64,000 nt of DNA from Streptomyces sp. STR69 (GTDB lineage: Bacteria; Actinomycetota; Actinomycetes; Streptomycetales; Streptomycetaceae): NCBI RefSeq assembly GCF_024519455.1, contig NZ_JALJRY010000021.1, positions 104,463 to 168,462 of the forward strand, given 5' to 3'. The position numbers and the translations under genes are program-made. Below, one piece after another: positions 2 through 15,787 of the stretch. Position 1 is the first letter of the stretch; each line of letters begins with the position of its first letter. A model generated the notes under the pieces. That model made no database searches, was not told the DNA's origin, and worked only from the letters and a program-made list of their open reading frames with translations.

Positions 2-65
2 CGCTTCGTCGCCGACCCGTACGCCACCGAACCCGGCGCCCGTATGTACCGCACCGGCGACCTGG
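2..65 (+). repeat. 64-bp exact repeat shared with the first Ser A domain
   Basis: Bases 2-65, covering the A-domain region around motif A7 (MYRTGDL), are identical to 7430-7493 and diverge immediately outside. This indicates recent intragenic exchange between A domains of the same synthetase. It is also a potential assembly or recombination hazard. Confidence 0.85.
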
Positions 66-3000
66 TGCGCCGCCGCGCCGAAGGCACGATCGACTACCTC
101 GGCCGCACCGACCGCCAGGTCAAGCTGCGCGGCAACCGCGTCGAACTCGGCGAGATCGAGGCCGAGTTGACCCGCATCCCAGCTGTGGCCCGAGGCGCGG
201 TCGTCATCCGTGACCAGCGGCTCATCGCCTACGCGGTCCCGGCGGCCGGGGCGGGCGTCGACCCCGCGGACCTGCGCGCCGCCCTCGCGGAGGCGCTGCC
301 CGCGCCCCTGGTCCCGGAGGCGTACGTCGTCCTCGCCGACCTCCCGCTCACCCCGAGCGGCAAGCTCGACCAGGCCGCACTGCCCGTCCCCGAGGCCGAG
401 CGCGCCGAACGCCGCCTGCCCGCAGGGCCGTTGGAACAGCGGCTCACCGAGATCTTCGCGGCCGTCCTCGGCATCGAGGACGTCGGCCCCGACGACGACT
501 TCTTCCGCCTCGGCGGCGACAGCATCAGCTCCATCGGCGTCGCGAGTCGCGCCCGCGCGGCGGGCCTGGACCTGAGCCCGCGCGACGTGTTCACGCACCG
601 CACGCCCGCCGCCCTCGCGCTGGCGGCCGGCACCGCAACGGCCGTAGCCACCAACCGTGTTGAGGCATTCACCCTCACCGGCGCCGAACACGCCCGTGTC
701 CGCGCCGTCGCCGCCCCGGCGGACGTCGCCGACGTATGGCCGCTGGCCCCCCTCCAGGAGGGCCTGTTCTTCCACTCGGCCTACGACGAGGGCGCGTTGG
801 ACGTCTACACCGTCCACGAGACCTTCGACTTCGCCACCCGCCTCGACACCACCCGTCTGCGCGCCGCCGTCCGTACCCTCCTCGACCGCAACCCGGGCCT
901 GCGCGCCGGCTTCACCAGCGACGGCCTCGACCAGCCGGTCCAGTTCATCGTCGAGGACCCGGAGATCCCCCTCGAAGAGGTTGACCTCTCGCTCCTCCCG
1001 GCAGCCGAACAGGACGTACTCCTAAGGGAGTTGACGGACGCCGAACGCAACCGCCGCTTCGACCTGTCCGCACCCCCGCTGTTCCGCCTCCTCCTGCTGC
1101 GCCTCGGCGCGGAACGCGGCGACCGACTGGTCATCGGCCGCCATCTGATCCTCTGGGACGGCTGGTCGGCCTGGCTGTTCCTCGACGAGCTGTTCGCGCT
1201 CTACGAGACGGGCGGCGACGGCAACGCCCTGCCCGAGCCGGGCAGTTACCGCGACTACCTGACCTGGCTGGAGGAGCAGGACGACTCCGTCGCCACGGCC
1301 GCCTGGCGCACCGCGCTCGCCGGCCTCGACGAGCCGACCCTGCTCGCACCCACCGCCGCCGACGGCCTCGAACCGGTCATCCCCGACCAGCTCGACACCC
1401 GTCTCCCCGCCGAACTCGGCGACCGGCTCCGCAAGTTGGCGCCCGCCCACGGCCTGACCCTCAACACGATCCTCAACGCGGCCTGGGGTCTCACCCTCGC
1501 CTCCGCGACCGGCCGCGCGGACGTCGTCTTCGGTACCACCGTCGCCGGCCGCCCCAGCGAGGTCCCGGACGTCGGCAACATCATCGGCCTGTTCCTCAAC
1601 ACCGTCCCGACCCGTATCGCCCTCGACCCCGCCGAGCCGGTCCTCGACCTGCTCCGCCGCATCCAGGGCGAACGCCTCGACCTCATGCCGTACGAGCACC
1701 TCAGCCTCGGTGTCCTCCAGGCCGAGACCGGACACCGCAAGCTCTTCGACACGCTGTTCGTGCTGCGCAACAACGACACCGAGGAACGGCTCGCCGACCT
1801 CAAGACCCGGCACGGCGCCACCGCCGTCGCCAACGTCGACGCCACCCACTACCCGGCCAACCTCGTCATCACCCCCGGCCGCGAGATCGCCGTCACCCTC
1901 ACCCACCGCCCCGACCTCGTCCCAACTGCCCACGCACAGGCCCTCCTCGACCGCTTCGCGCTCCTCGTCGACCGCCTCACCGCCGACCTCACGGCACCGG
2001 TCGGCTCCCTCGACGCCCTCCTCCCCGCCGAACACGAGGCGCTGCGGCGGGAGTCGGCGGCCAGCCGTGTCCCGGACCCCGAGGACACCATCGCCGACCT
2101 GCTGGCGGCGCAGGCCGAACGCACCCCGGACGAGCGGGCCCTGGTCTTCGGCGAGCGCAGCATGACGTACGCCGAACTCGACGCGGCCGTGAACCGCATG
2201 GCCCGGCTGCTGATCGACCGGGGCGCGGGCCCCGAGCGGGTCGTCGCCCTCGCTCTGCCGCGTTCCCTCGACATGGTGGTGGCCCTCTTCGCGGTCCTGC
2301 GCACCGGAGCGGCCTACCTCCCCCTGGAGTTGGACCACCCGGCCGACCGCCTGTCCCTGATGCTGGCCGACGCCCGCCCGCTCCTCCTGCTCAGCACCAC
2401 GGCCGTATCGGCCACGCTGGACGGCGAGACGACCCGCGTCCTGCTCGACAACCCGGACGTGAAGGGGGAGTTGGCGGATCAGCCGGACGCTCCCGTCCGC
2501 CTCCGCTTCAGCCTTGAACACCCCGCCTACGTCATCTACACCTCCGGCTCCACCGGCCGCCCCAAGGGCGTCGTCACCCCCTACCGGGGCCTGACGAACA
2601 TGCAGTTGAACCACCAGAAGGAGATCTTCGAACCCGCCATCGCCTCGGCCGGCGGGCGACGGCTGCGCATCGCGCACACCGTGTCCTTCGCCTTCGACAT
2701 GTCGTGGGAGGAACTGCTCTGGCTCGTCGAGGGCCACGAAGTGCACGTCTGCGACGAGGAGTTGCGGCGCGACGCCGAAGCGCTGGTCGCCTACTGCGAA
2801 CGCCACCGCGTCGACGTGGTCAACGTCACCCCCACCTACGCCCGACTCCTCATCGAGCAGGGCCTGTTGGAGGGCCACGTCCCGCCGCTCGTCCTGCTCG
2901 GCGGCGAAGCCGTGCCGGAGACGGTGTGGACGGCCCTGCGCGACACCGAGGGCACGTACGGCTACAACCTGTACGGGCCGACCGAGTACACGATCAACAC

Positions 3001-15000: not shown

Positions 15001-15787
15001 CCTTCCGCTGGCTCGTCCGCTCGACCCCGCCCGGGACACCGTCGCCACCACCCGCCACCTCTCCCTGACCCTGCCCGCCGACCTCACCGAACCGCTGTTG
15101 AGCCGCGCCCCGGCCGCCTTCGGCGCCACTGTCAACGACGTCCTGCTCACGGCGTTCGCGCTGGCGGTCGGGGACTGGCGGACCCGGACACTCGGCGCGC
15201 GGGACACGGGCGGGCCCGTCCTCGTCGACCTGGAGGGCCACGGCCGCGAGGAGCAACTCGCCGGCGACGCCGACCTGTCCCGTACGGTCGGCTGGTTCAC
15301 CAGCGTCGTACCCGTACGACTCGACCCGGGCCAGGCCGACTTGGCGGACGCCTTCGCGGGCGGGCCCGCGCTGGACACGGCCCTGGCCCGGGTCCGCGCC
15401 CACCTCACCGCGCTGCCCGCGGCCGGCATCGGGCACGGGCTGCTGCGCCACCTCAACGCCCGGACCGGCCCGCTCCTCGCCCAAGTCGCCGAGCCACAGA
15501 TCGAGTTCAACTACATGGGCCGCTTCGACCGCCCGGCGGCGGCCGACTGGTCCTACGCGCCCGAGGACGACGCGGCCGACCTCGACGCCGACCCCGGCCA
15601 GCCGATGTCCCACGCCCTGACCCTCAACGCCATCACCGAGAACCGCCCCGAGGGCCCGGAGCTCAGCGCCCACTGGGCGTACGCCGCCGAACTCCTCACC
15701 GAGGAGCAGGTGCAGGACCTGGCCCGCACCTGGTTCCGGGCCCTGGAGGCCGTCGTACGACGGGCGGACGCTCTCAACAGGACCTGA
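2..15787 (+). CDS. Siderophore-type non-ribosomal peptide synthetase, 5'-truncated
   Basis: The reading frame is open from nucleotide 2, so the start lies outside the window. Domains by nucleotide: A (A7-A10 only) 2-390, T 425-640 (GGDS), C 700-2050, A 2085-3400 split by a methyltransferase 3450-4550 (SAM motif LEVGVGSG), T 4790-5000 (GGHS), C 5047-6370, A 6415-7830, T 7855-8060 (GGHS), C 8112-9430, A 9490-10950, T 10980-11190 (GGDS), C 11285-12560, A 12620-14090, T 14135-14345 (GGDS), E 14395-15770 ([22 protein letters not shown]). Specificity codes read by eye are DMENLGLINK (known for N5-hydroxyornithine in coelichelin-type synthetases), DVWHMSLVDK twice (serine family) and DAQEGGLVDK (unassigned). 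There is no thioesterase, so release or further extension must occur on another protein. I infer a hydroxamate siderophore containing N-methyl-hydroxyornithine and two serines, in the style of albachelin. The product name is not established. Confidence 0.95.
4250..4333 (+). repeat. 42-bp in-frame tandem duplication after the methyltransferase domain
   Basis: Two consecutive 42-bp units (4250-4291 and 4292-4333) encode [14 protein letters not shown] and [14 protein letters not shown]. They lie in the linker between the methyltransferase and the A10 motif. The repeat is imperfect and in frame, so it lengthens the linker by 14 residues without disrupting a known motif. Confidence 0.8.
6415..10950 (+). 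repeat. Duplicated serine modules within the NRPS
   Basis: The two consecutive serine A domains (about 6415-7830 and 9490-10950) carry the same specificity code. They share long near-identical stretches, for example from the AMP-binding motif [11 protein letters not shown] through [11 protein letters not shown] and on to the CSGEALP and NLYGPTEAS segments. The intervening C and T domains are clearly more diverged. This fits module duplication followed by A-domain homogenisation. Confidence 0.7.

What the first reader, a model, noticed from the sequence alone, without database searches (positions are those of the whole stretch)
2..15787. Siderophore NRPS with N-methyl-hydroxyornithine, Ser, Ser and an epimerised terminal residue but no thioesterase
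Codes read as DMENLGLINK with an embedded methyltransferase, then two DVWHMSLVDK, then DAQEGGLVDK ending in T-E. This resembles albachelin-, oxachelin- or scabichelin-like peptides without being obviously identical to any. Ending in E without TE means the chain is passed to another synthetase or released in trans, for example by cyclisation of a hydroxyornithine.
Basis: partly seen in the sequence, partly recalled or inferred. Interest (0 to 1): 0.7.

Follow-up and report, generated by a model that had tools for sequence, protein, structure and literature searches.

The report
Scabichelin/albachelin-type siderophore synthetase
This is a large enzyme that builds a small iron-scavenging peptide of a known family (scabichelin, turgichelin, albachelin); the missing release domain that looked odd is normal for that family, so the find is a sound but ordinary new member whose exact product may not have been described.

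Summary
The window opens just after a 99-N scaffold gap; the 56 bp before the gap equal window 1-56, and joining the halves gives one 7341-aa, six-module synthetase: A-MT-T / C-A-T / C-A-MT-T / C-A-T / C-A-T / C-A-T-E. Three relatives align across the junction at 90-92% identity, so no module is hidden. Beside it lie an ornithine hydroxylase, a formyltransferase, siderophore transport genes and MbtH; three iron-box-like sites stand at promoters. Seven of 18 fetched relatives have exactly this layout; S. scabiei (scabichelin) has five modules; Amycolatopsis has the albachelin layout. All 18 end T-E. The terminal code equals that of S. scabiei, printed as loading hydroxyornithine, so the last residue is most likely hydroxyornithine released as a cyclic hydroxamate, not passed to another synthetase. 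Predicted product: N-Me-formyl-hOrn–Ser–N-Me-hOrn–Ser–Ser–cyclo-hOrn, 707.345 Da (inferred, not measured): turgichelin (as I reconstruct it) plus one serine. Verdict: a new member of a known kind. Five- and six-module forms separate almost cleanly on a tree and differ by roughly an A-T-C block.

The parts
2..15787 (+). C-terminal 5261 aa of the six-module siderophore NRPS; the gene begins outside the window at about -6393 (L010:13607) and is cut by a 99-N scaffold gap just before window 1
719..2020 (+). condensation domain of module 3
   Evidence: HMM from the gene's own domains
2129..3439 (+). A3, code DMENLGLINK (hydroxyornithine, inferred)
3494..4561 (+). N-methyltransferase embedded in A3
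6455..7702 (+). A4, code DVWHMSLVDK (Ser, inferred)
9530..10834 (+). A5, code DVWHMSLVDK (Ser, inferred)
12653..13981 (+). A6, code DAQEGGLVDK (written DAWEGGLVDK for scabichelin in PMC7692728; hydroxyornithine)
14129..14335 (+). last thiolation domain
14369..15751 (+). terminal epimerisation domain with [10 protein letters not shown] and EGHGRE; the gene ends after it
15838..15993 (+). MbtH-like protein downstream of the NRPS (matched stretch)
   Evidence: PF03621
16100..17176 (-). substrate-binding protein of an iron-siderophore uptake system
   Evidence: Pfam Peripla_BP_2 8.7e-21; related frame in 18 of 18 fetched relatives
17225..20212 (-). ABC exporter subunit; its domains begin at residue 441 of 995, so the true start probably lies further in
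   Evidence: Pfam ABC_membrane and ABC_tran; related frame in 18 of 18, one at 29%
19030..20733 (-). second ABC exporter subunit
   Evidence: Pfam ABC_membrane and ABC_tran; related frame in 18 of 18
20760..20778 (.). iron-box-like 19-mer at the exporter promoter
   Evidence: 4 mismatches to a consensus recalled from memory; one of three such sites in 104 kb against 0 in each of 6 resampled sequences

Best explanation
The gene is the single six-module synthetase of a scabichelin/albachelin-type tris-hydroxamate siderophore cluster. An ornithine hydroxylase and a formyltransferase supply hydroxyornithine (hOrn) and formyl-hOrn. The synthetase joins N-methyl-formyl-hOrn (A1-MT), Ser, N-methyl-hOrn (A3-MT), Ser, Ser and a last hOrn (A6). 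With no thioesterase, the last residue is inferred to leave the carrier when its own N5-hydroxylamine attacks the thioester, forming a cyclic hydroxamate that is also the third iron ligand. The product is exported by the ABC pair and taken back by the binding protein and FecCD transporter, under iron-dependent repression. Shown by sequence: module order, absence of a TE, A codes, neighbours, shared architecture. Inferred: all substrates (A1 the weakest), the working of MT1, the release step, transport roles, stereochemistry and iron regulation. Predicted neutral product C27H49N9O13, 707.345 Da.
For: One 7341-aa frame after overlap joining. Of 18 fetched relatives, 7 give exactly the same domain string; 5 more (bauhiniae, Planotetraspora, hyaluromycini, LaPpAH-108, Acrocarpospora) differ only by an N-terminal C hit or doubled hits. 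A1, A3 and A6 codes equal those of S. scabiei and S. turgidiscabies in the same extraction, with 81-85% identity for A1 and A3 and 65% for A6. PMC7692728 prints the hOrn assignment of the terminal code, and antiSMASH's hydroxy-acetyl-ornithine for the A/MT/T first module of Phytohabitans. PMC4599437 prints albachelin's synthetase as ending in T/E, and Herbidospora NRPS-1 with the same domain order as here. The scabichelin-like version of this scheme computes to 647.360; the printed scabichelin mass is 647.36. Hydroxylase, formyltransferase, permease, binding-protein and exporter frames have relatives in 18 of 18; MbtH; three iron-box-like sites in 104 kb.
Against: No product was measured. A6 is only 65% identical to the S. 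scabiei terminal A domain, less than A1 and A3. Streptacidiphilus, with six modules, lacks the second MT hit. MT1 activity is untested; without it the product would be 693.329 Da. Trans-acting release enzymes are reported or proposed for amychelin (AmcB) and kineochelin (KinT), so unaided release is not shown. The terminal E domain has no assigned role in this scheme.
Confidence: 0.86

Rival explanations
1. The T-E end hands the peptide to a second synthetase (C-A-T-TE) that adds further residues.
For: T-E ends often donate to a following C domain in other NRPS systems (general knowledge). Other condensation domains exist in this genome on contigs C43, C46, C35 and C81.
Against: All six condensation-family matches on contig C44 lie within this gene. 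All 18 relatives' synthetases end the same way; I did not look for separate NRPS genes in their flanks. Albachelin, whose synthetase is printed with a T/E end, contains a cyclic N-hydroxyornithine and six residues, the number of its modules.
Confidence: 0.05
2. Release is catalysed by a trans-acting hydrolase or thioesterase, as proposed for AmcB and KinT, rather than by the T-E module alone.
For: Such enzymes are reported or proposed for amychelin, kineochelin and cahuitamycin. An amidohydrolase gene with an iron-box-like site before it lies 0.6 kb beyond the hydroxylase gene. The rest of the genome was not searched for one.
Against: The genes between -11980 and 20733 that I annotated include no hydrolase or thioesterase. 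The amidohydrolase has a relative at that place in 8 of 18 fetched regions, plus a 31% match elsewhere in S. turgidiscabies; two Amycolatopsis regions were too short to show it. PMC12305651 finds no AmcB homologue in the kasichelin cluster either.
Confidence: 0.35
3. The cluster makes exactly a known compound, for instance a tsukubachelin (Streptomyces), whose structure I could not read.
For: PMC6011815 lists tsukubachelin as an NRPS-dependent siderophore (passage). That it contains hydroxyornithines and serines is recall only.
Against: Not testable here: 3 held papers name the compound; the passages seen in two give no structure, and the third was seen only in the listing.
Confidence: 0.35
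4. The scaffold gap hides one or more modules, so that the six-module count is an artefact.
For: The gap lies in a stretch of which 40 bp recur in a later A domain.
Against: S. hokutonensis, S. xylophagus and S. prunicolor align across the junction in one piece of 610 residues at 90-92% identity, and each has the same six modules.
Confidence: 0.02

Closest known systems
Scabichelin/turgichelin synthetases (S. scabiei 87.22, S. turgidiscabies Car8)
   Same: A-MT-T start, Ser-type module 2, hOrn-type A-MT module 3, last module C-A-T-E; identical A1, A3 and last A codes; related neighbour genes; T-E end
   Different: Five modules; six here. By domain identities the difference is roughly an A-T-C block (A5, T5 and the last C) between our fourth C and the last A
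Albachelin-type synthetase (Amycolatopsis)
   Same: Six modules; from module 2 on Ser-type, hOrn-type with MT, Ser-type, Ser-type, terminal hOrn-type with T-E (A. coloradensis and A. jejuensis)
   Different: Module 1 has a C domain and no MT (albachelin contains an N-acetylated formyl-hOrn), and module 2 carries an extra E
Herbidospora NRPS-1 (albachelin-like, PMC4599437)
   Same: Printed as A/MT/T-C/ASer/T-C/AOrn/MT/T-C/A/T-C/ASer/T-C/A/T/E: the same domain order
   Different: Fourth residue unassigned there, Ser-type here; no product in the passages seen
Amychelin, kasichelin and kineochelin synthetases
   Same: Last module without TE, C-terminal N-hydroxyornithine lactam or cyclic amide
   Different: Aryl-capped mixed-ligand siderophores; a trans hydrolase or TE is reported or proposed for amychelin and kineochelin

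Membership tests
scabichelin/albachelin-type tris-hydroxamate NRPS | hOrn-type A domain with embedded MT, code DMENLGLINK | tested here: met
scabichelin/albachelin-type tris-hydroxamate NRPS | last module C-A(hOrn code)-T-E, no TE | tested here: met
   hOrn assignment from PMC7692728 (passage)
scabichelin/albachelin-type tris-hydroxamate NRPS | linked ornithine hydroxylase, formyltransferase and siderophore transport genes | tested here: met
scabichelin/albachelin-type tris-hydroxamate NRPS | product with cyclic hydroxyornithine and three hydroxamates | not testable with these tools
   needs LC-MS or NMR
scabichelin/turgichelin proper | five modules | tested here: not met
   six modules
albachelin proper | module 1 with a C domain and no MT; E in module 2 | tested here: not met
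   A1-MT start without a C hit, no E in module 2; albachelin layout as printed in PMC4599437

The most novel reading that the evidence does not exclude
The predicted hexapeptide (N-Me-formyl-hOrn–Ser–N-Me-hOrn–Ser–Ser–cyclo-hOrn, 707.345 Da) is undescribed; the five- and six-residue forms of the family arose by natural loss or gain of one A-T-C block in front of the terminal A domain; and the T-E module itself, with no hydrolase in the cluster, releases the chain as a cyclic hydroxamate.
Probability: 0.3. Interest if true: 0.4.

Novelty: new member of a known kind. Interest (0 to 1): 0.22.

Why it matters
It indicates that an NRPS that ends T-E without TE and bears the DAQEGGLVDK (DAWEGGLVDK) terminal code belongs to the cyclic-hydroxyornithine siderophore family and needs no partner synthetase. 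It gives a precise mass to look for, and a set of sister synthetases that differ by about one A-T-C block, a natural case of how assembly lines change length. How a chain leaves a T-E end is not demonstrated; this family, with no hydrolase found among the conserved genes of the cluster, is a good place to test it.

Tried and rejected
Iron boxes: the consensus found nothing in the window at up to 3 mismatches; the strongest site lies upstream of it, and the exporter site needs 4 mismatches. The hydroxylase/formyltransferase promoter has no site within 4 mismatches in this genome, although several relatives have one at about that place.

C-domain type: an expression for dual condensation/epimerisation domains found nothing in the 19 synthetases, but my expression for the HHxxxDG motif failed on most C domains too, so I conclude nothing about stereochemistry. 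The strict E motif EGHGR was found in 68 of 80 loci; of the 12 misses L053 and L092 are partial, the other ten were not followed.

Code extraction: positions were anchored on motifs of A6, chosen from recalled GrsA numbering. differ at position 239 because of a one-residue loop difference; codes are quoted and species are compared within one call. In one search some loci lack codes because the A3-motif expression missed them. DMENLGLINK as a hydroxyornithine code also rests partly on recall.

The structures of scabichelin, turgichelin and tsukubachelin could not be read. The residue lists behind the scabichelin- and turgichelin-type masses are my reconstruction, checked only against the printed scabichelin mass. 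The residue order of albachelin was not printed in what I saw; its composition was.

NCBIfam on the NRPS gave only generic models among the 25 shown. The amidohydrolase was considered as the release enzyme and set aside, being absent from about half of the fetched regions.

Conservation was tested with frames of our region as queries, so genes that relatives have and this genome lacks were not seen; wrong-strand frames were matched too. The tree is a quick LG+G4 one with flagged long branches (L080 with L082); L080 (Rhodococcus, six-module) sits on the five-module side, and the tree cannot tell gain from loss. Five/six-module labels come from the distance between the methyltransferase and the last A domain. 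The T before E of the five-module enzymes is slightly nearer our T5 (71 and 65%) than T6 (65 and 62%), so the right border of the block is not exact.

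Full report
Observation. It is the right-hand 72% of a longer gene. The window begins directly after a run of 99 N in contig C44 of a 10.73-Mb, 130-contig genome; the nearest named relatives are Streptomyces (96% over A6-T-E), so I take it for a Streptomyces. The 56 bp before the gap are identical to window 1-56, so the two pieces overlap. Joined, the gene reads 7341 codons without a stop. S. hokutonensis, S. xylophagus and S. prunicolor align over the junction in one piece of 610 residues at 90-92% identity, and the pieces left and right of it fall next to each other in each.

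Architecture. HMMs built from the gene's own domains give, for the whole protein, A-MT-T, C-A-T, C-A-MT-T, C-A-T, C-A-T, C-A-T-E. About 280 residues before A1 gave no C-domain hit here, but four relatives (S. turgidiscabies, Planotetraspora, S. bauhiniae, LaPpAH-108) show a C hit in that place, so I read them as a C-domain remnant. Pfam lists no thioesterase family in the three parts scanned. The terminal E domain keeps [22 protein letters not shown] and NYMG.

Parts outside the window (window-relative, with locus coordinates): ornithine N-hydroxylase -11980..-10658 minus (L010:8020-9342); formyltransferase -10592..-9621 plus (L010:9408-10379); ABC ATPase -9503..-8616 minus (L010:10497-11384); FecCD permeases -8611..-7541 minus (L010:11389-12459) and -7541..-6516 minus (L010:12459-13484); iron-box-like 19-mer -6431..-6413 (L010:13569-13587; 3 mismatches, 0 of 200 shuffles with a match); N-terminal part of the NRPS -6393..-99 plus (L010:13607-19901); 99-N gap -98..0.

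Neighbours. To the left lie an ornithine N-hydroxylase, a formyltransferase, an ABC ATPase and two FecCD permeases; to the right an MbtH-like protein, a Peripla_BP_2 binding protein and two ABC exporter subunits. Frames related to the hydroxylase, formyltransferase, permease, binding protein and both exporters occur in 18 of 18 fetched regions, and to the ATPase in 16 of 18, one of these at 31%. None of the genes that I annotated between -11980 and 20733 is a hydrolase or thioesterase. Three sites within 4 mismatches of the iron-box consensus (recalled) occur in the 104 kb examined, at -14112, -6431 and 20760: before an amidohydrolase gene, between permease and NRPS, and before the exporter genes. 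Six first-order resamplings of the same sequence had none. The middle site is the same 19-mer in 8 of 18 relatives.

Relatives. A scan of the species-genome collection with A6-T-E found 298 relatives, of which the best 80 loci were kept. Twenty of their genomes were searched for the N-terminal part and all 20 matched; 18 regions were fetched, leaving out Phytohabitans flavus and Rhodococcus rhodnii. In one search, 7 of the 18 (hokutonensis, prunicolor, seoulensis, SID13726, xylophagus, NRRL F-6676, OV320) have exactly the domain string found here. Five more (bauhiniae, Planotetraspora, hyaluromycini, LaPpAH-108, Acrocarpospora) differ by an N-terminal C hit or by doubled A or MT hits. Streptacidiphilus has six modules but no second MT hit. 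S. scabiei and S. turgidiscabies have five modules. Three Amycolatopsis have C-A-T, C-A-T-E, C-A-MT-T and three further modules. All 18 end in T-E. Of the 80 loci, 78 have a longest frame that ends within 22 residues of the match, L092 among them because its contig ends there; in L053 my longest frame was not the one with the full match, and L091 (a Lentzea NRPS) continues. In an even draw of 199 genomes of the window's genus, 40 pass E 1e-250; 16 of these (own included) match at 63% or more, the other 24 at 49-56%, which I take for other NRPSs. By open frame, five of the 15 others are of six-module size, six of five-module size and four are fragments.

Substrates. Within one extraction the A1, A3 and A6 codes of this gene equal those of S. 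scabiei and S. turgidiscabies. The mass of N-Me-fhOrn + Ser + N-Me-hOrn + Orn + cyclic hOrn is 647.360; the paper prints 647.36 for scabichelin. Exchanging Orn for Ser-Ser gives the product predicted here, 707.345. S. seoulensis, LaPpAH-108 and Acrocarpospora carry in A4 the code of S. scabiei A4, which I assign to Orn by that reconstruction, so six-residue relatives with Orn there are likely. A1 is the least certain assignment.

Release. PMC4599437 (passages) prints the albachelin layout, which also ends in T/E; PMC6151521 (passages) lists a cyclic N-hydroxyornithine in albachelin. PMC12305651 (passages) and PMC13238742 (passages) discuss TE-less synthetases with hydroxyornithine ends, with AmcB or KinT acting in trans and no AmcB homologue for kasichelin. 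The T-E end is thus no sign of a missing synthetase. Cyclisation by the terminal hydroxylamine is the best reading; whether a helper is needed is open.

Evolution. By domain identities the five-module enzymes of S. scabiei and S. turgidiscabies lack about an A5-T5-C block: their last C resembles our fourth C (63 and 66%) and their last A our A6 (65%), while their last T is slightly nearer our T5 than T6. On a quick tree of the terminal A-T-E (79 rows), six-module (35, ours included) and five-module (28) enzymes need two changes, against about 21 for shuffled labels; 16 rows could not be classed, and L080 sits on the other side on a long branch. The tree does not give the direction.

Verdict. 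A real, probably complete and iron-regulated siderophore cluster of a known kind. The exact hexapeptide did not turn up in the listings or the passages read, but I made no search by its formula or mass and the key structure papers are not held, so I do not claim that it is unreported.

Noticed in passing
window 1-56 and the 155 bases before it (G000:C44:104308-104518): The window starts right after a 99-N scaffold gap whose flanks share 56 identical bases; the gene is split by assembly, not by biology.
   Followed up: yes
L010:5922-7421 (window -14078..-12579), site at -14112: An amidohydrolase (PF07969) gene preceded by an iron-box-like site has a relative at that place in 8 of 18 fetched regions (a site within 4 mismatches before it in 4 of these 8); possibly an iron-regulated siderophore-processing enzyme.
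   Followed up: partly
L010:7503-7934: A short isochorismatase-family frame (143 aa, matching profile positions 61-173 of 175) sits between the amidohydrolase and hydroxylase genes; relatives in 6 of 18 fetched regions.
   Followed up: no
window 719-2020: This C domain has [10 protein letters not shown] instead of HHxxx[12 protein letters not shown] or RHLLLWDGWS was found in all 18 relatives, so the change is a family feature.
   Followed up: no
window 35448-37883: SARP-like regulator frame (BTAD with a Trans_reg_C domain); the next two frames checked (37918-39141, 39166-40494) have no Pfam match, and 40331-41155 is an RmlD-type frame.
   Followed up: no
G000 contig C46:17116-128789: 13 condensation-domain matches on both strands and one MbtH match on one contig: large NRPS loci, not studied.
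   Followed up: no
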